NCBI RefSeq assembly: GCF_001614315.2 | Contig: NZ_LVEG02000004.1 | Span: forward strand, 248,001-312,000 | Reading direction: 5' to 3' | Length of the DNA: 64,000 bases | Origin: Halofilum ochraceum | Lineage (GTDB): Bacteria; Pseudomonadota; Gammaproteobacteria; XJ16; Halofilaceae | Program-made: the position numbers and the translations under genes | The notes under the pieces: generated by a model | What the model was told of the DNA's origin: nothing | Database searches by the model: none | The model's input: only the letters and a program-made list of their open reading frames with translations | In this document: in pieces, positions 9,068-47,070 of the stretch | How positions within the stretch are numbered: position 1 is the first letter of the stretch | Layout: each line of letters starts with the position of its first letter

Positions 9068-10870
9068 TCATTTCTTCTTCGGCAGGTACAGATCCGTGAT
9101 CGTGCCTTCGCCGATCTCGGCCGCGAAGGCGACGGTCTCCGAGAGTGTCGGATGCGGATGGATCGTCAGCGAGACATCCTCGATGTCCGCGCCCATCTCG
9201 AGCGCCAGCGTCGCCTCGGCGATCAGGTCGCCCGCATGCGGGCCGGCGATGCCGGCGCCGAGGATGCGTTGCGTGTCCGGGTCGTAGAGCAGCTTGGTCA
9301 CGCCGTCCTCGCGGCCCATGCCCAGCGCGCGGCCGGAGGCCGCCCACGGGAAGCTGGCCTTCTCATACTGGATGCCTTTCTCTTTCGCCTCGGTCTCGGT
9401 CAGCCCCATCCATGCGACTTCCGGATCGGTGTAGGCGACCGACGGGATGGTGCGGGCGTCGAAGCCGGACTTGTGACCGGCGCAGACCTCGGCGGCGACC
9501 TTGCCCTCGTGCGTCGCCTTGTGGGCGAGCATCGGCTGGCCGACGATGTCGCCAATGGCGTGGATGTGATCGACGTTGGTGCGCTGGCGTTCGTCGACCG
9601 CGATGAATCCACGCTCATCGACCGTGACGCCGGCGTTGTCGGCGCCGATGTTGTGGCCGTTCGGTGTGCGGCCAACCGAGACGAGTACGCGATCGAACAC
9701 GTCCGTCTCCGGCGCCTTATCACCCTCGAAGTGCACCTTGATGCCCTGTTTTTGGGCATCGGCCTTGGCGACCTTCGATTTCGTGTAGATGTTCTCGTAC
9801 CGCGACTTGATCCGTTTCTCGAGGACCTTCACGAGGTCGCGGTCCGTGCCGGGCATCAGGCCGTCCGCCATCTCGCACACCGTGACCTTCGAGCCGAGCG
9901 CATCGTAGACGCAGGCCATTTCCAGACCGATGATGCCGCCACCGATCACCAGCAGGCGTTTCGGAATCTCGTCGAGTTCCAGCGCGCCGGTCGAGGTCAT
10001 CACGCGCTCGTCATCCCAGGGCAGGGACGGGATCTTCACCGACTGCGATCCCGCGGCGATGATCGCGCGCTCGAACCCGACCGTCTTCGTGCCGTCCTTC
10101 GTTTCGACGGCAACGCTGTTCGGCGAGGTGAAACTGCCATCGCCGTGCACGACGGTCACGCCGCGCTGCTTTGCCATGGACTTGAGGCCACCGGTGAGCT
10201 TGCCAACGACCTTGTCCTTCCAGCCCGATAGTTTCTTGGTGTCGATCTTCGGCTTGCCGAACTCGACACCGTGTTCGGCGGCGCGTTCGGCGCCGGTGAT
10301 GACCTCGGCAGTGTGCAGGTAGGCCTTGGACGGGATGCAGCCGACGTTCAGACAGACGCCGCCAAGCGCGTCGTAGCGCTCGACCAGCACCACCTCCAGG
10401 CCCAGATCGGCCGTGCGGAAGGCCGCGGTATAGCCACCCGGCCCGGAGCCGAGCACCAGCACCTGGCACTGGATGTCCGTGTCCGATGGAGCCGCCTTCG
10501 GGGCTGGCGCTTCTTTCTTCGCGGACGCTTCCTTCTCCTGTGTCTTCCCGCTTTCGTCTTTCTCCGCGGGCTCCGAGGCCTCCTGTGCGTCCGATCCGGA
10601 CTCACCCGCGTCCGACGTTTTCTCGCCTTCCTCGGCCTCGAGCGTGAGGATGACGTCGCCTTCTTTCACCTTCTGTCCGACCGATACCTTGACCTCTTTG
10701 ACCGTCCCGCCTTCCGGCGCGGGGATCTCCATGGAGGCCTTGTCCGACTCGAGCGTGATCATCGAGTCCTCGGCGGCGATCGAATCGCCGGGCGAGACAA
10801 GCACCTCGATGATCTCGACCTCATCGAAATCGCCGATGTCCGGTACGGGAATATCCTTGGTCTGGCTCAT
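9068..10870 (-). CDS. lpdA: Dihydrolipoyl dehydrogenase (E3) with N-terminal lipoyl domain
   Basis: 600 residues. Reoxidises dihydrolipoamide of the pyruvate dehydrogenase complex with NAD+. Residues 1-80 are a lipoyl domain with the lipoylated Lys44 in [10 protein letters not shown], then an acidic/Ala-Lys-rich linker (80-132). The flavoprotein follows: GSGPGG (141-146), redox disulfide C173/C178 in [16 protein letters not shown] loop [12 protein letters not shown], and catalytic His in HPHPTLSE near the C-terminus. E3 with its own lipoyl domain is known in Neisseria, Pseudomonas-like and related bacteria. The first 80 codons and the leader closely match aceF. Third gene of aceE-aceF-lpdA. 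Confidence 0.97.
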
Positions 10871-36992: not shown

Positions 36993-38711
36993 GAGACCGT
37001 GAAAGTATTCCGCACCGGAAGGCCGGGCACCGCCGTTGCCGGCCGGTGAAGTCTGTCAGGCGGCCGCGGGCGCGCCGATGGACTGATGCTCGGTCCACGC
37101 GCGCATCGCCCGGAACAGGCGCGTGATGGCGGCACCGGAGCGGGAACGCGCGGAGCGGTGCCGGGCCCGCGCGGCGATCGCCGCGCGCAGCGCCCGCGGG
37201 CCGAGCACGTTGAGCACGCGCCGGAAGTTGTAGGCGAGCATCACCAGCCCGAGTTCGCCGTTGACCCGTTCGAGTCCGCGCACCAGGAAGTGATCCCAGC
37301 CGAGCCAGCGCTTGCCGGTGGCGAACGGGTGTTCGGACATCTCCGCACGCCGGCGCATGGCCTCGCGCCCGCCTTCTTCCATGCGCGGGCGATGCTCGCC
37401 CTCCAGCCACTCCTCGTGCTCGCTGCGGTAGATCTCGCGATAAGGCGTGCGCGCGGACAGGCAGGCTTCGCGGATCGGGCAGCACGCGCAGTCCGCGCGG
37501 TGGCTGGCGTAGTGGATCTGGCGCTGCCCCGAGCGGGTGATCACGCGCTGGCGCGCGAGGAACGCGCCCCGCGGACAGCGATAGCCGTCGGCCCCGGCGT
37601 CGAAGGTGAACGCCGCGCGCGCCACGCGCCCCGTCGCCGCCGAGGGGCCGCGGGGACGCGGCTCGGGCACATAAGGGGTGATGCCCGCGCCCTCGCAGGC
37701 CCGCATCTGTGCGGGGTTGAAGTAGTCGCCATCGGCGACCACCGTGAACCGCCCCATCCCCAGCGCGTCGGCGGCGCGCCCGGCCATCGGCTGCAGCTGA
37801 TGGCGGTCATTGCCGTCGCCGGTGGCCACCCCGTCGATGATCAGGCGCAGGCGCCCGTCGATCGCCAGCTGCACGTTGTAGCCGCACACCACGCGCCCGT
37901 TCTTGCTCAGACGCCGCGCATCCGGATCGACCTCGCTGAGCTGCGTCCCGCCGCTCGCCTGCAGGCGCGCCAGGCGGTCGGCCTCGCGCGCCTGGCGCTC
38001 GCGCAGGCGCTCGAGCTTCTCCCGCAGGGCGTCGGCGTCGTCATCGCCGCCCGGCGCCGCCGCTTCCGCTTCCGAGCGGTCCACCTCGTCCAGCGCCTGC
38101 AGATAGCGTTCGATGTCCGCCTCGATGCGCTGCACGCGCCTGTTCAGCTGATCGCGCGTGTGGATCCCCCTGGCGCCGGCATCACCGGCGAAAAACGAGC
38201 CGTCGATCGCCACCAGCTCGCGCCCGTACAGATCCAGCTCGCGGCACAGCTGCACGAAATCCCGGTGCACCGCCTGCAGCGCTTCGGCGTTGTCGCGGCG
38301 GAAATCCGCGATCGTCTTGTGGCACGGCTTCAGCCCCCGCAGCAGCCACATCACCTCCAGGTTGCGGTAACACTCCGCTTCCAGGCGGCGGCTGCTGCGC
38401 ACGCGCATCAGATAGCCATAGAGGTAGAGCTTCAAAAGCGCCGCCGGCGGATACGCCGGCTGCCCCGCGCTCACGCCGTCCGCCGTGTTCGTCACGCCCA
38501 GCGCGCGCAGATCCAGGCTCTCCACATACGTGTCCAGCGCCCGCACCGGGTTGTCTTCGGATACGTAGTCCTCCACCCGCATCGGCAGCAGCTGGCCCTG
38601 CCCGCGTTCCACGCCCGCCTTGTATCGCCGCGTCATGAAACGATCGCTCCGCTGGTCACAACGCGCGCGATTTTACCGGTACCGGAAAAACGCGAATACT
38701 TTTACAGTCTC
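36993..38711 (-). mobile_element. IS1182-type insertion sequence, complete
   Basis: 1,719 bp. Terminal inverted repeats: GAGACCGTGAAAGTATTC at 36993-37010, and at 38694-38711 the complement of GAGACTGTAAAAGTATTC (16 of 18 match). A 4-bp target duplication GGCA flanks both ends (36989-36992, 38712-38715). One transposase gene fills it. Removing the IS and one GGCA rejoins a REP palindrome (GTTGGGTTGAGCGGCA joined to GCGATACCCAAC). Confidence 0.9.
37056..38636 (-). CDS. IS1182-family transposase
   Basis: 526 residues, uninterrupted. N-terminal MTRRYKAGVERGQGQLLP, LYGYLMRVRSSRRLEAECYRNLEVMWLL and FRRDNAEAL are IS1182-type; DDE candidates are Asp in VAIDGSFFAGD, Asp in VVADGDYFNP and Glu in EMSEHPFATGKRWLG. 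A long coiled region (about 170-230) and a Cys-rich patch (CACCPIREAC) lie between. The frame looks intact, so the element may be active. Confidence 0.92.
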   Translation of the reverse strand: MTRRYKAGVERGQGQLLPMRVEDYVSEDNPVRALDTYVESLDLRALGVTNTADGVSAGQPAYPPAALLKLYLYGYLMRVRSSRRLEAECYRNLEVMWLLRGLKPCHKTIADFRRDNAEALQAVHRDFVQLCRELDLYGRELVAIDGSFFAGDAGARGIHTRDQLNRRVQRIEADIERYLQALDEVDRSEAEAAAPGGDDDADALREKLERLRERQAREADRLARLQASGGTQLSEVDPDARRLSKNGRVVCGYNVQLAIDGRLRLIIDGVATGDGNDRHQLQPMAGRAADALGMGRFTVVADGDYFNPAQMRACEGAGITPYVPEPRPRGPSAATGRVARAAFTFDAGADGYRCPRGAFLARQRVITRSGQRQIHYASHRADCACCPIREACLSARTPYREIYRSEHEEWLEGEHRPRMEEGGREAMRRRAEMSEHPFATGKRWLGWDHFLVRGLERVNGELGLVMLAYNFRRVLNVLGPRALRAAIAARARHRSARSRSGAAITRLFRAMRAWTEHQSIGAPAAA

Positions 38712-38920
38712 GGCAGCGATACCCAACGGGTCGAGGCGGCGCGTCTGGACACGCTCCGGCCCGATCACCGACGCTTGGCCCGCCGCATCGGGTTCCCTTC
38801 GTCAACCCGACCTGCACGAAGTGCGCTGCCACGAGTCCCGCGGGTCGGCATCCATTCGTCCCGCCACCCACCACCCAGGTACACTCGTCGCCGATTTTCG
38901 GATAACCCAGGGAGACCCCG

Positions 38921-39814
38921 ATGACGACATCCAGCGAACCCACCCCCCGGCGCGTTGCCTTCATTGGTCTCGGCGTGATGGGCGGCCCGATGGCCGGGCA
39001 CCTCGCAGCCGCCGGCCATGACGTGACGGTCTACAACCGCACGCGCGCGACCGCCCAGGCCTGGTGTGACACACATGGTGGCCGTTTGGCCGACACACCG
39101 GCCGAGGCCGCGCGCGACGCCGAACTGGTGTTTGCCTGCGTCGGGCGAGACGAGGACCTGCGGGCCGTGACGCTGGAGGCCGACGGTGCCTTCGAGACCC
39201 TCGGGTCGGGTGCGGTGTTCGTGGATCATACGACCGTCTCCGCCGAGATCGCGCGCGAACTGGCGGACGCGGCCCGGTCACGCGGGGCGGGGTTTGTCGA
39301 TGCCCCCGTATCGGGCGGTCAGGCCGGGGCAGAGAATGGGCGTCTGGCCGTCATGGCGGGGGGCAGCGAGGCCGATTTCGCGGCCGCCGAACCCGTGATT
39401 CAGGTCTACTCGGCCCGCGTCGTCCACATCGGCGAGGCCGGCGCCGGACAGCTCACCAAGATGGTCAACCAGATCTGTATCGCCGGGCTCGTGCAGGCCC
39501 TGTCCGAGGGCGTCGATTTCGCCGGCCGCGCCGGGCTCGATATCGAGCGCGTGCTGGAGGCCATCGGCGGCGGCGCCGCGCAGTCCTGGCAGATGGACAA
39601 CCGCGCCCGGACCATGGCCGAAGGGGAGTTCGATTTCGGCTTCGCCGTCGACTGGATGCGCAAGGATCTGGAGATCTGCATGGCCGAGGCCCGCCGCAAC
39701 GGCGCGACGTTGCCGGTCACGGCGCTGGTGGATCAGTTCTATGGCCAGGTGCAGGCACGCGGTGGCGGCCGCAACGACACATCGAGCCTGATTCGGCTCC
39801 TTTCGCAGCCCTGA
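38921..39814 (+). CDS. 3-hydroxyisobutyrate dehydrogenase-family oxidoreductase
   Basis: 297 residues. NAD(P)-dependent beta-hydroxyacid dehydrogenase (GlxR/GarR/MmsB group). Nucleotide loop GLGVMGGPMAGHLAAAG, substrate motif DAPVSGGQAGAENGRL, catalytic Lys in GAGQLTKMVNQIC, and DFGFAVDWMRKDLEI near the C-terminus. The natural substrate (tartronate semialdehyde, 3-hydroxyisobutyrate or another) is open, since no pathway genes adjoin. ATG 38921 with GGGAG upstream. It lies between the IS and the DnaA-box region. Confidence 0.9.
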   Translation: MTTSSEPTPRRVAFIGLGVMGGPMAGHLAAAGHDVTVYNRTRATAQAWCDTHGGRLADTPAEAARDAELVFACVGRDEDLRAVTLEADGAFETLGSGAVFVDHTTVSAEIARELADAARSRGAGFVDAPVSGGQAGAENGRLAVMAGGSEADFAAAEPVIQVYSARVVHIGEAGAGQLTKMVNQICIAGLVQALSEGVDFAGRAGLDIERVLEAIGGGAAQSWQMDNRARTMAEGEFDFGFAVDWMRKDLEICMAEARRNGATLPVTALVDQFYGQVQARGGGRNDTSSLIRLLSQP

Positions 39815-40001
39815 GCTGTTGACTTATGCACACGGCGCGTGCCGGGGGCACCGGATCAAGCGCAGGGTGCAACCGTTTGCGCGCCGTTTCATAAGTCACT
39901 GTTTTCCGGGGGTGTAACTGAATGGATAAAATCTGACCAGAGCCCACAAGGGCGCCGCGAGATGCCGGGACAGGGCAACAACGCCCAGACTTTCCACATG
40001 T

Positions 40002-40024
40002 TTATCCACAGGTTCTGGGGATAA
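40002..40024 (+). repeat. DnaA-box palindrome, copy 1
   Basis: Arms TTATCCACAG and CTGGGGATAA around GTT, one mismatch from a perfect inverted repeat. A weaker box CTTTCCACA starts 12 bases upstream (39990). Confidence 0.85.
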
Positions 40025-40335
40025 CCGGCGATACCCGCGTCGTGCCAGGCACTTACGTATTTTCCGTAGGCCAGGGGCTGGGATCGTGCTCTCTCTGCCG
40101 ACGTGAAGAGTACTTCAGCGCTGATAAAAAGGGTCTCTGTCAACCCGAAAATCCGATTTATCAACATGATTGAACAGTGGGTACGGGTCGGTCAGGGGCG
40201 CTGCCACACTTGGCGCGCGGTTTTGTAAGTATTTGATTGTTGGGGTCTTAAACAACTGTTCAGAGTTTGGCCAGCCCCCACTGGGTGGCCGCTGGAGGCC
40301 GGGCTGCGGCCATCTCCCCCAGATTATTCACAGAC

Positions 40336-40358
40336 TTATCCACAGGTTCTGGGGATAA
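40336..40358 (+). repeat. DnaA-box palindrome, copy 2
   Basis: Identical to copies 1 and 3 over 23 bp. TTATTCACA starts exactly 12 bases upstream (40324). 334 bases from copy 1. Confidence 0.88.
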
Positions 40359-40690
40359 CCGGCGTAAGTGCCGTTGTAACAACAAGTTAGCGCCGCTGTC
40401 ATAGCCACTGGGGGATGCCGGCCACCCCCGCAAACCGTGTTTTCGGTTCCAGTGGAAATCGAGGCCCGAAATATTTCTCGTGCGGATTGCCTGTCAAGGT
40501 CTTGACTCAAGTTATGCACAATGCATTGGCCGTCTTGCCGGATGTTGACTCGTCTGCGAGCGATAACATGCCTGTCTGCGTAACCATTTGTTTTCCCGGT
40601 AAAAAATCACATGAACAAAAAATGACCAAAGGCACCGGGAGCGCAGCAAGAGGCCGTGTAGCGACGTGTCCCCCCACATTATCCACATTG

Positions 40691-40713
40691 TTATCCACAG
40701 GTTCTGGGGATAA
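40691..40713 (+). repeat. DnaA-box palindrome, copy 3
   Basis: Identical 23-bp core. TTATCCACA starts exactly 12 bases upstream (40679), and an AT-rich tract with runs of A and T (40580-40628) lies 50 bases further up. 355 bases from copy 2. Confidence 0.88.
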
Positions 40714-40836
40714 ACCGCTTTCTCCTTTGGCCACGGGCACTTGGCGCCAACCGTTACAGTGGCCGCCGTCGACGCCCGGCGCGCGCTCGGCGATAATGCC
40801 CGGCTTCGGCCGGCCGGCCGCGAACCGATTCTGTCA

Positions 40837-44655: not shown

Positions 44656-45198
44656 ATGGAACGTTCGCTCAATCGAAATAACGTTGAGGCCGCAATCAGC
44701 AAATACGAGGCCTCAATCGAAGAGATCGGCGAAACGATCTCGGATCTTCGGGGCGTCTCCTTATTTCAATCATTGAAACGTAGGCCGATTGGGGTCGGAC
44801 CCTATCCGCACGTCACGTTATTCGAAGCGGCAAACCGGATTATGACCGACCTTGTGATCCTGAAAGGAGTGCGTTTTCTTCTCCATTCAAACGCATTACC
44901 TTTCGACGAATACATCGTCGAGTACGGGAATGAGGACGCGAACGATCACGATATATCGGCCGAGAAAAGTGGCCAACGACTTATCGCCGAAGCGTTCAAT
45001 GTCGCCCCATCGTTCTTTCAGGGAAAAAAGAACGCCATGCGGAAAAAGCTCCGCACCAGCAGCGTGCGCGCAGACTATATGATTATCTTGGCCAATTCAG
45101 ACGCAGTACCGCAAGACTACGCTCCAAAGTACCTGGCGAAAGAATATTTCGTGTTTGTCGATTTGGAATCAGGAAAGGGTACTGTGATGCCTAACTAG
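44656..45198 (+). CDS. Cassette 1 protein, unrecognised
   Basis: 180 residues; codon usage and GC are unlike the chromosome around it. Starts 12 bases after the core site with GGGAGG just upstream; the stop codon TAG lies inside the attC site, as often in cassettes. An alpha-helical N-terminus (to about 35) is followed by PHVTLFEAANRIMTDLVILKG and a basic patch QGKKNAMRKKLR; the end is strand-rich (YFVFVDLESGKGTV). I cannot name a family; a nuclease-like fold is imaginable from EAFNV...QGKK but not supported. Confidence 0.7.
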   Translation: MERSLNRNNVEAAISKYEASIEEIGETISDLRGVSLFQSLKRRPIGVGPYPHVTLFEAANRIMTDLVILKGVRFLLHSNALPFDEYIVEYGNEDANDHDISAEKSGQRLIAEAFNVAPSFFQGKKNAMRKKLRTSSVRADYMIILANSDAVPQDYAPKYLAKEYFVFVDLESGKGTVMPN

Positions 45199-45268
45199 TC
45201 TTTCAAGCGGACCGCTGAAATCGCGGCTTCACCGCGCTTTCAGCGGCCGCTCAACTGAGGCGTTAGAT
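45189..45268 (+). other. attC site of cassette 1
   Basis: 80 bases from R'' GCCTAAC (45189-45195) to R' GTTAGAT (45262-45268). The inside folds as a long hairpin: AAGCGG with CCGCTC, then CCGCTGAAA with TTTCAGCGG, then CGCGG with CCGCG around CTTCA. Both boxes match the RYYYAAC/GTTRRRY consensus. Confidence 0.85.
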
Positions 45269-45306: not shown

Positions 45307-45933
45307 ATGGCCGAATACACATACACTACCGTTCCCGGGAAGATGAGTAAGTTACTGGCCAAAATTCGCGAGGTGGGCGTACCTTCCAAGGTCAACTAGC
45401 GCTGGTTGGAGTCGATAGGCTTTAAATCCAGCAACGATCGTACTCTCCTGTCCGTTCTAAAATTTATCGATTTCGTCGATGATTCGAGCGTACCCACATC
45501 GCGATGGAGAGACTATCGGGGTGGTAATCACAAGCAGGTTCTCGCGAATGCGATACGCGAGGGCTATCGGGATCTATTCGACGTCTACCCAGACGCCAAC
45601 GATCGGACCGCTAGCGAAATCGAGCACGTTGTCAGCACAAACACATCGGCAGGGCGCCAGGCGGTCACGAAGGCAGTCCGCACGTTCCACACACTATGCG
45701 CGGAGGCAGATTTTACGGCTCTCGGGTCCGACGAGCCCGCGTCCACAAGTACCAGTAACGAGTCGGACACGGGCGCGGGCACGGTAGCCGCCGGGTCGGC
45801 GAACACGTCAGCGCCTAGTACGTCCGGGCCTTCTCTGCACGTGGATATACAGGTTCACATATCTCCGGAGGCATCCGCTGATCAAATCGATCAAATCTTC
45901 GAGAGCATGTCGAAGCACCTCTACAAGCAATGA
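45307..45933 (+). pseudogene. DUF5343 protein gene with in-frame amber codon
   Basis: ATG 45307 has TTGGAGAG upstream and reads MAEYTYTTVPGKMSKLLAKI, the typical DUF5343 start. After 30 codons comes TAG (45397-45399), then the same frame continues with RWLESIGFKSSNDRTLLSVL to TGA 45933. The family normally has Gln at that point (VNQ-W), so a single CAG to TAG change broke it. The C-terminal third is Ser/Thr-rich linker plus an acidic helix. Expression would need readthrough, suppression or a restart at TTG 45406. Its end overlaps the next gene (ATGA). Confidence 0.75.
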
Positions 45934-46448
45934 AGGACTTGGTAAAAGCGACACTTGAGGCAAGCCGGGCTGCGCAGTTTGACGCGACGACGCTCGCTGG
46001 GAGCGTCCCGGACGAAGGATTGCCCTCATACAGCCATCAGGTACTTCCAAAGTCGCTATACAAAAATACGCGCGGTTATATCGAAAAGGTCGCTAATCAG
46101 GTCAACGGCTGCTATGAGAAGGGATGGTTCGACGCAGCCGCTGTGATGGCGCGTCGTCTCCTTGAAACGCTAATAATCGAATGCTTTGAGAAGCACAATA
46201 TCGCTGCGAAAATAAAGAACAGCAATGGCGATTTCTACCACTTGCGAGATCTGGTCGGTCTCTTTTTGGGAGAAACCACGTGGAACGTTGGGCGTAACAC
46301 GAAACGCGCTCTGCCAAGACTAAAAGATATTGGAGACAAGTCGGCCCACAGCAGAAGATACACGGCACGACGCTCGGATCTCGACAAAGTCCGAGTTGAA
46401 CTTCGAGACGTTACCGAGGAGTTGCTCTACATCGGTGGTCTCAAGTAG
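45930..46448 (+). CDS. DUF4145/HEPN-like protein (cassette 2)
   Basis: 172 residues. The helical core WFDAAAVMARRLLETLIIECF and the motif LKDIGDKSAH match the DUF4145-like HEPN pattern (LRxxGNxAAH). The HEPN RNase motif R-x4-6-H is not met: the nearest Arg (R130) is ten residues before His140, so it may be a non-catalytic HEPN or use other residues. Start ATG overlaps the DUF5343 stop, so the pair is translationally coupled and probably works together. Lower GC than the chromosome. Confidence 0.7.
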   Translation: MKDLVKATLEASRAAQFDATTLAGSVPDEGLPSYSHQVLPKSLYKNTRGYIEKVANQVNGCYEKGWFDAAAVMARRLLETLIIECFEKHNIAAKIKNSNGDFYHLRDLVGLFLGETTWNVGRNTKRALPRLKDIGDKSAHSRRYTARRSDLDKVRVELRDVTEELLYIGGLK

Positions 46449-46451
46449 TGC

Positions 46452-46509
46452 CTCTAACTAGTTAATTCAGCCCAAAGACTCCGTCGGCGGCGGATTAAAT
46501 CCGTTATAA
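46452..46509 (+). other. attC site of cassette 2
   Basis: 58 bases from R'' CTCTAAC (46452-46458) to R' GTTATAA (46503-46509). TTAATTCAGCC pairs, with bulged bases, with GGCGGATTAA. R' departs from GTTRRRY, so this is a weaker site than that of cassette 1, but its boxes match the neighbouring cassette ends as expected. Confidence 0.6.
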
Positions 46510-46548: not shown

Positions 46549-47070
46549 ATGGAAGAACTAAGGAAATTCGACCGGCTAACAGAAATCGATGAACGGCACG
46601 AATTGCTTGCGCGCGTCACCGGACAGTTACTCGATATCGAGAAATTGCACAACGTGGTATCGAACGAGATTCTAACCAGCGGCGTCCCGGAAGATATACA
46701 CGGTCAATACAATGTGGCGCGGAACATGGCCGTTTATACCTACTACTTGTACTCATTAGCCCCAGAAGTCCATATGAAAACGTACGCTGTAATGGAGATG
46801 GGAGTCCGTCGGTATTACGGAGACGACGAACAGACGAATCTTAAGGCGCTGCTCCAAAAGGCGCTAGACAGAGGGGTTATTAGTGATTCCGGATTTCGGG
46901 ATTGCGAGAGTGCCTGCGGGACCTCTTACACCCAGACGTTTGTGGATACGTTTCCGAAGCTGCGGAACAGCGCGGCTCATGGAAGCTCTATGTTGGTGCC
47001 TCACTGCGTCGGCCACATTAGGCGATGTGCGGATTTCCTGAACCAGCTCTTTCCGGCGGAGGCGTGCTAG
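46549..47070 (+). CDS. HEPN-domain protein, possible RNase (cassette 3)
   Basis: 173 residues, mainly helical. The C-terminal part carries KLRNSAAHGSS: Arg139, Asn140 and His144 fit the catalytic R-N-x3-H form of the HEPN R-x4-6-H motif seen in toxin and defence RNases. The N-terminal half (EELRKFDRLTEIDERHELL) is a predicted helical pair, and YAVMEMGVRRYYGDDEQTNLKALL resembles the HEPN core helix. No antitoxin-like gene shares the cassette. ATG 46549 has only weak ribosome-site support. Function as an RNase is inference from the motif. Confidence 0.68.
   Translation: MEELRKFDRLTEIDERHELLARVTGQLLDIEKLHNVVSNEILTSGVPEDIHGQYNVARNMAVYTYYLYSLAPEVHMKTYAVMEMGVRRYYGDDEQTNLKALLQKALDRGVISDSGFRDCESACGTSYTQTFVDTFPKLRNSAAHGSSMLVPHCVGHIRRCADFLNQLFPAEAC

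What the first reader, a model, noticed from the sequence alone, without database searches (positions are those of the whole stretch)
45307..46448. DUF5343 + HEPN-like two-gene unit in one cassette, with an amber codon in the first gene
The DUF5343 frame is intact except for one TAG at 45397-45399, where the family has Gln; the second gene overlaps by ATGA, so expression is coupled. Two-gene modules with a HEPN partner are often defence or toxin-antitoxin systems. Either the break silenced the system recently, or TAG is suppressed. The HEPN partner lacks the R-x4-6-H motif, so it may be a structural or effector-recruiting HEPN. Function is inference.
Basis: partly seen in the sequence, partly recalled or inferred. 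Interest (0 to 1): 0.8.

Follow-up and report, generated by a model that had tools for sequence, protein, structure and literature searches.

The report
Broken, partner-swapped two-gene defence candidate
A two-gene unit in a small foreign stretch of a bacterial chromosome looks like a known phage-defence candidate whose second protein has been exchanged for another type, and in this genome its first gene is cut short by a stop codon and is probably switched off.

Summary
A DUF5343 gene (45307-45933) has one in-frame TAG at codon 31 and overlaps by ATGA a HEPN gene (45930-46448) without R-x4-6-H. The family does not 'have Gln' there: 4 of 15 relatives do. The pair is recurrent: 14 of 15 genomes with a DUF5343 match over cut-off carry a HEPN gene directly downstream. 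PADLOC lists DUF5343 + Swt1-type HEPN as the candidate PDC-M34 (10 of the 15). Here gene A fits PDC-M34A over its whole length, but gene B is a different, DUF4145-like HEPN (4 of the 15), so this is a partner-swapped variant. A C-terminal strand-helix tail of A co-varies with the HEPN type, which suggests that it docks B. The pair lies in a three-ORF low-GC stretch behind a clear attC site, far from a dead integron integrase, and is best read as an integron cassette. TAG suppression is not supported: RF1 is intact and no CTA tRNA was found. The likeliest state is a silenced copy; intact copies exist elsewhere. Defence function, the sensor-effector mechanism and the active site of B are inferred. 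Sequencing error at the TAG cannot be excluded.

The parts
44656..45198 (+). ORF of the preceding cassette (180 aa), no known family
   Evidence: its stop abuts the attC start
45189..45268 (+). attC recombination site (GCCTAAC ... GTTAGAT, 80 nt)
   Evidence: both core boxes 7/7; bottom strand folds at -26.6 kcal/mol, z -6.03, 0 of 200 shuffles as good; the only hit of a strict scan of the 64 kb. A cruder scan with a different score did not separate it from shuffles
45307..45933 (+). Gene A: DUF5343 / PDC-M34A-like protein (208 codons plus stop, one internal TAG)
   Evidence: PF17278 127 bits; PDLC04589 2.8e-44 over residues 3-205; model pLDDT 80.2
45397..45399 (+). in-frame TAG, codon 31, at the start of the second helix of the predicted N-terminal domain
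45406..45408 (+). TTG, the only ATG/GTG/TTG in frame between the TAG and 45600; possible but poor restart (AAGG about 14 nt upstream)
45832..45930 (+). C-terminal strand-helix tail of A, presumed docking element for B
   Evidence: shared and partner-specific among A proteins; modelled after a disordered linker
45930..45933 (+). ATGA stop/start overlap of A and B
45930..46448 (+). Gene B: DUF4145-like HEPN protein (172 aa), intact
46332..46349 (+). GDKSAH (residues 135-140): His kept, canonical Arg replaced by Gly
   Evidence: G135 and H140 in 12 of 12
46452..46508 (+). possible degenerate attC closing the cassette
   Evidence: weak: fold z -0.83, 41 of 200 shuffles as good
46549..47070 (+). 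third ORF of the low-GC stretch (173 aa), with an R-N-S-A-A-H HEPN-like signature

Best explanation
This is an inactivated copy, probably carried as an integron gene cassette, of a two-gene anti-phage-type unit: a variant of PADLOC's candidate PDC-M34 in which the usual Swt1-type HEPN is replaced by a DUF4145-like HEPN. Gene A would be the sensor/adaptor: a winged-helix-like, probably nucleic-acid-binding N-terminal domain, a disordered linker, and a strand-helix tail that docks the HEPN. Gene B would be the effector: a HEPN domain that, once A senses the invader, acts on RNA or translation and stops the infected cell. In this genome the TAG at codon 31 ends A early and, through the ATGA coupling, probably lowers B too. 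Shown: gene anatomy, TAG, recurrence, family assignment of A, predicted fold of B, partner-specific tail, attC. Inferred: nucleic-acid sensing, docking, effector chemistry, defence, silence.
For: A fits PDC-M34A end to end. HEPN directly downstream in 14 of 15 genomes with DUF5343 over cut-off (ORFs in 27, 40, 56; HEPN type in 39, 57, 86). The same DUF5343 + DUF4145-like pair is in 8 loci counting the window (L009, L011, L013, L072, L080, L081, L090). In two congeneric genomes, beside purD, B has dN/dS 0.026 and A downstream of L081's lesion 0.11. The tail is HIS-type in 8 of 8 A genes with a DUF4145-like partner and LP-type in 10 of 10 with a Swt1 partner; tail scores 43.3 against 17.7 shuffled (sd 3.8), linker control 19.7. 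Defence neighbours: mREase_II and PDC-S35 (L009), MTase_II (L011), REase_II (L010) and TIR (L023). attC and a GC drop to 0.50-0.57. RF1 and tRNA set. Integron cassettes as stores of often unexpressed anti-phage genes: PMC12409362 (passages read).
Against: No experiment on DUF5343 pairs was found: 'DUF5343' and 'PDC-M34' each gave 0 papers. B does not match PDC-M34B, and the B profile has no detectable kinship to the Swt1-type profile (hhalign probability 0.25%). A's fold has no convincing solved relative (best VIA Z 4.5 to the BpuJI DNA-binding domain), so DNA binding is a guess. The downstream attC is weak and the crude attC scan was not significant for this window. 5 of 9 loci with scanned neighbours had no PADLOC hit, and the choice of neighbours was not systematic.
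Confidence: 0.5

Rival explanations
1. Toxin-antitoxin pair: B is a HEPN toxin and A its antitoxin and autoregulator.
For: Overlapping small genes; HEPN toxins with partner antitoxins are known, and HEPN toxin structures are among the fold matches of B. PD-T4-5, matched at 2e-6 by the PDC-M34-type B of L010, is described as TA-like with abortive-infection defence (PMC9519451, passages).
Against: In 3 of 18 pairs A is broken while B is open: window, L081 (10-bp deletion), L010 (tail out of frame); B is open in 18 of 18. An essential antitoxin should not be lost first, although coupled translation may lower B as well, and 3 against 0 is a small number.
Confidence: 0.2
2. The TAG is a base error of this assembly and the pair is intact and active here.
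For: It is a single lesion; all other codons of A and B are open, and the reading frame after it scores 88.8 bits.
Against: No positive evidence; the surroundings look decayed (dead intI; weak downstream attC) and other copies of such pairs are broken too (L081, L018).
Confidence: 0.15
3. TAG is read through (suppressor tRNA or recoding), so full-length A is made.
For: Only that the frame is open on both sides of the TAG.
Against: Intact RF1 (537.8 bits, no stops); 44 tRNA genes, none with CTA; 4 of 29 long ORFs in the window end in TAG, and so do the two neighbouring ORFs and gene B. Caveat: tRNA-Ile(gat) and Ala(tgc) were not found, so the tRNA set in the assembly is not quite complete.
Confidence: 0.03
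4. N-terminally truncated A from the TTG at 45406 is the working form.
For: A TTG lies three codons behind the TAG; in L081, too, a TTG-started frame follows the lesion.
Against: The restart has no well-placed ribosome-binding site and the product would lose the first helix of a confidently modelled domain; 6 of 8 same-type copies keep the full N-terminus.
Confidence: 0.07

Closest known systems
PDC-M34 (PADLOC-DB 2.0.0 candidate: PDC-M34A + PDC-M34B)
   Same: A: full-length match 2.8e-44; two tightly coupled genes, A first; HEPN as B; strand-helix tail on A
   Different: B is not PDC-M34B: DUF4145-like HEPN without R-x4-H, where PDC-M34-type Bs keep R-x4-H in 10 of 10; tail of the HIS type; A broken here
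DUF4145 / AbiJ-like HEPN domains
   Same: HEPN fold; Pfam DUF4145 21.2 bits; PADLOC AbiJ 18.7 bits over 70 residues
   Different: under Pfam's cut-off; stand-alone partner of a DUF5343 protein; canonical Arg replaced by Gly in 12 of 12
Integron-cassette HEPN family (PDB 3jrt) of Anantharaman et al. 2013, PMC3710099 (passages read)
   Same: HEPN protein carried by an integron
   Different: that family is listed as keeping Rx4-6H and without a DUF5343 partner; not compared by sequence here
Integron anti-phage cassettes (Darracq 2025, Kieffer 2025, Getz; seen only as described in PMC12409362)
   Same: small units in cassettes, often unexpressed at their locus
   Different: identity with any of those named systems was not tested

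Membership tests
PDC-M34 | component A matches PDC-M34A | tested here: met
   PDLC04589 2.8e-44, residues 3-205 of 208, read with TAG as a residue
PDC-M34 | component B matches PDC-M34B (Swt1-type HEPN) | tested here: not met
   no PDC-M34B match up to E 0.1; hhalign of the two B profiles 0.25%
PDC-M34 | tail of A of the LP type seen with Swt1 partners | tested here: not met
   HIS type
HEPN superfamily | four-helix HEPN fold | tested here: met
   VIA Z 13.4 (2hsb), 11.5 and 11.1 for other HEPN-type entries; B is a helical bundle, for which the tool calls Z under about 13 unsafe
HEPN RNase | R-x4-6-H motif | tested here: not met
   H140 kept, Arg position is Gly135 in 12 of 12
DUF4145 (PF13643) | score over the curated cut-off | tested here: not met
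   21.2 against 23.1 bits; one relative, L015, passes with 26.4
Integron gene cassette | attC site upstream (end of the preceding cassette) | tested here: met
   (the cruder score did not single it out)
Integron gene cassette | own attC downstream of the genes | tested here: inconclusive
   46452-46508, fold z -0.83
Complete integron | functional intI beside the array | tested here: not met
   none of 7 tyrosine-recombinase matches lies on C4; the IntI-like gene on C5 has a stop, a deletion and a frameshift
Toxin-antitoxin system | B toxic alone, neutralised by A | not testable with these tools
   needs expression assays
Anti-phage defence system | protection shown by challenge | not testable with these tools
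   needs phage assays

The most novel reading that the evidence does not exclude
DUF5343 proteins are a common sensor chassis whose short C-terminal strand-helix tail is an exchangeable docking code: one tail type recruits Swt1-type HEPN RNases (PDC-M34), the other recruits a DUF4145-like HEPN with a re-arranged active site (H140 with R75/R76/E79 in place of R-x4-H). The same HEPN family also pairs with at least two other kinds of winged-helix gene, so sensor and effector are mixed like plug and socket, with integron cassettes among the vehicles.
Probability: 0.3. Interest if true: 0.6.

Novelty: new variant of a known kind. Interest (0 to 1): 0.42.

Why it matters
It extends a listed but untested defence candidate to a second effector type and offers a concrete handle: a 30-residue tail that appears to decide which HEPN an A protein works with. 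That makes the A-B division of labour testable by tail swaps. It also adds another defence-type two-gene unit in what looks like an integron cassette. The stop codon itself is of little interest: in a decayed cassette stretch a nonsense mutation is expected.

Tried and rejected
Recombination of A (N-domain from PDC-M34, tail from the other kind): pairwise scores look mosaic (N-domain of window/L080/L090 nearer to the M34 type, tail nearer to L009/L011/L013/L072), but the N-domain tree does not decide it: the tree that keeps all DUF4145-partnered N-domains together is only 0.03 log units worse (AU p 0.474). I therefore claim co-variation of tail and partner, not exchange.

Third ORF as a relative of B: BLAST E 0.65, no relative in viral contigs. 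Plasmids: no match for A, B or the L080 B protein; phages: none for B. PDB by sequence: nothing usable for A or B. The Foldseek and VIA matches of A to DEAH-helicase, Roquin and GntR domains are too weak to use. attC by a home-made box-pairing score: window site 10.5 against a shuffle 95th percentile of 11.5, so not significant there; L015 (14.5 against a largest shuffle of 13.0) and L016 (18.5 against 15.5) were. A DNA search with the attC found no second copy in the genome.

Rows dropped before the 14-of-15 count: G628 (20.1 bits, under the family cut-off). Kept as a miss: G542 (28.8 bits, partial, no HEPN next to it). HEPN loci without a DUF5343 partner: L014 (HEPN shortened, one TAA), L015, L074, L016, L017, L018 (decayed), L091, L092, L093, L094 (fragment).

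Full report
What is in the sequence. Gene A runs from ATG 45307 (preceded by GGAG) to TGA 45931-45933 with one in-frame TAG at 45397-45399, codon 31; gene B runs from ATG 45930 to 46448 and overlaps A by ATGA. Read with the TAG as a residue, A scores 127 bits to PF17278 (DUF5343, cut-off 27); the 175 codons after the TAG alone score 88.8. B scores 21.2 bits to DUF4145, just under its cut-off of 23.1, but its model (pLDDT 85.5) matches HEPN structures: Z 13.4, 2.6 A over 119 residues to 2hsb, and most of the following rows down to Z 9.0 are HEPN entries (Foldseek's first rows are HEPN-type entries too). B has no R-x4-6-H.

The Gln claim. In the alignment of A with 15 relatives the column of codon 31 holds Gln in 4, His in 3, Leu in 2, Pro in 2 and Thr, Ala, Glu, Ile once each. 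The residue is not conserved, so relatives do not tell what stood there.

Is TAG a stop here? RF1 (prfA) is intact at C4:245240-246313 (537.8 bits). Rfam finds 44 tRNA genes; ARAGORN reads the anticodons over these places (the 30 returned loci plus 13 fetched stretches) and none is CTA. Ile(gat) and Ala(tgc) are missing from the list, so the set is not quite complete. Of 29 long, non-overlapping ORFs in the window 4 end in TAG. TAG is a stop; suppression has no support. A base error cannot be tested with these tools.

Setting. The stretch 44.8-47.2 kb has GC 0.50-0.57 between flanks of 0.60-0.68. It holds three ORF units. Between the first and the pair lies GCCTAAC ... GTTAGAT, 45189-45268: both core boxes perfect, bottom strand folding at -26.6 kcal/mol (z -6.03, 0 of 200 shuffles as good), and the only hit of a strict scan of the whole 64 kb. 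I take this as an attC site. The expected second attC behind B (46452-46508) is degenerate and does not fold better than shuffles (z -0.83), and a cruder pairing score did not separate even the first site from shuffles. No tyrosine-recombinase match lies on the window's contig (7 matches in the genome). One, on C5 (L005/L020), reads as an integron integrase by eye (recalled motif knowledge, no family search), with a stop, a deletion and a frameshift. I read the region as a small cassette group cut off from a dead integron.

Recurrence. PF17278 passes its cut-off in 7 of 369 genomes of the class and 10 of 398 of the phylum, together 15 different genomes (two are in both samples). In 14 of the 15 the next gene downstream is a HEPN gene: 10 carry a Swt1-type HEPN (Pfam HEPN_Swt1 over cut-off in 10 of 10: L010; L021-L024 and L075-L079) and 4 the DUF4145-like HEPN (the window, G151, G395, G684). 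The miss is G542, a partial 28.8-bit match. Outside these samples the DUF5343 + DUF4145-like pair also occurs in L009 (a Pseudomonadaceae MAG), L011 and L072 (viral-contig collection) and L090: 8 loci with the window. The HEPN itself was found in 7 of 369, 5 of 398 and, in the genus of G395, 6 of 146 genomes. A and B lie within a few bases of each other in these loci, overlapping by up to 11 or separated by up to 6 bases, except L010, whose A frame ends early; the start of B in L090 was not fixed.

What it is called. PADLOC's PDC-M34A model matches the window's A at 2.8e-44 over nearly its whole length. The Swt1-type partners that I scanned match PDC-M34B (L010 2.6e-39; L021 1.3e-70 and L076 3.3e-41; 3 of the 10 were scanned). 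The window's B does not, nor does the B of L080, and profile comparison finds no kinship of the two B families. So A belongs to PDC-M34A, B does not belong to PDC-M34B: a variant with another HEPN. PDC stands for 'phage defence candidate' (PMC11514479, passages). I found no paper naming DUF5343 or PDC-M34; only the held open-access library was searched.

The tail. A's model is a compact, winged-helix-like N-terminal part (helices 10-22, 31-36, 42-53, 65-70) with a helical continuation to 133, a disordered stretch 141-175 and a final helix 191-206 behind an extended segment (pLDDT 80.2). That tail carries HIS...QI..IF in all 8 A genes with a DUF4145-like partner (window, L009, L011, L013, L072, L080, L081, L090) and LP...IF in all 10 with a Swt1-type partner (in L010 in a shifted frame). 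Tail-to-tail scores between the two sets (6 and 9 proteins) average 43.3 against 17.7 for shuffles (sd 3.8) and 19.7 for an equally long piece of linker, so the tails are related; and their type follows the partner. These are not 18 independent cases. I take the tail as the likeliest docking element for B. Whether N-domains and tails were recombined stays open.

The active site. PDC-M34-type Bs keep R-x4-H in 10 of 10. In the DUF4145-like Bs the Arg place is Gly in 12 of 12 while the His stays; R48, R75, R76, E79 and R159 are invariant, and K or R stands eight residues before the His in 11 of 12. The HEPN survey (PMC3710099, passages) notes a family that lost the Arg but has other conserved basic residues that could replace it. 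So B may still be a nuclease; this is inference.

Selection and decay. L080 and L081, same genus and both beside purD, show dN/dS 0.026 for B (45.5 synonymous, 5.5 non-synonymous differences) and 0.11 for A behind the lesion, although L081's A carries a 10-bp deletion. Counting all 18 pairs, A is interrupted in 3 (window, L081, L010) and B in none. This speaks mildly against A being an antitoxin that the cell cannot lose, but the number is small and coupling may silence B.

Defence context. Neighbours scanned with PADLOC gave known or candidate defence genes at L009 (mREase_II 3.6e-33, PDC-S35 5.4e-109), L011 (MTase_II 5.7e-169), L010 (REase_II 9.6e-96) and L023 (TIR, PDC-S66 1.1e-67) and none at L022, L072, L076, L078 and L080; the neighbours were picked by hand. 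L072 has a phage-type integrase directly behind the pair (called so by sight). A review (PMC12409362, passages) reports that about a tenth of Vibrio cholerae integron cassettes gave phage protection when expressed, and that most are thought silent at their locus. The finding fits that picture.

Mechanism, by step. Shown: two coupled genes, recurrent; A's family; B's predicted fold; tail type follows B type; TAG. Inferred: A senses nucleic acid of the invader; the tail brings B; B stops the cell, by RNA cleavage or otherwise; here the unit is off. I put the whole chain at 0.5, the identity of the unit alone at about 0.85.

Noticed in passing
window 40002-40699 (intergenic 39815-40740): Four perfect TTATCCACA boxes on one strand (0.06 expected in 64 kb), three of them in a longer repeat with GGTTCTGGGGATAA behind it, and GC skew turns from negative (32-44 kb) to positive (44-64 kb): a candidate replication origin about 4 kb from the cassettes; dnaA is on another contig (C17).
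   Followed up: partly
window 46549-47070: Third ORF of the low-GC stretch carries R-N-S-A-A-H, a canonical-looking HEPN signature, but matches no family and not B.
   Followed up: partly
window 44656-45198: First cassette ORF, 180 aa, no family found in Pfam, PADLOC or NCBIfam.
   Followed up: partly
L020 about 9700-10350 (G000:C5 near 434 kb): Integron-integrase-like gene with an in-frame TAG, an internal deletion and a frameshift; attC-like sites beside it.
   Followed up: partly
L015 and L074: The same HEPN family behind another kind of first gene (helical start plus winged-helix-like end, by sight); in L015 the unit starts right behind an attC-like site and others follow it.
   Followed up: partly
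L016, L017, L018, L092, L093: Third architecture: the first gene begins with a strand-helix-like stretch resembling A's tail, the second is winged-helix-like plus HEPN; the resemblance was not tested.
   Followed up: no
L010 1480-2007: PDC-M34-type gene A whose tail lies in a shifted frame, while the Swt1-type HEPN is open.
   Followed up: partly
L014 1498-1902 (minus): Solo HEPN of this family, shortened with one TAA, with no DUF5343 gene beside it.
   Followed up: no
window 37056-38924: A transposase-like ORF (526 aa, minus; by sight IS1182-like) overlapped by a 612-aa antisense ORF, probably an effect of high GC.
   Followed up: no
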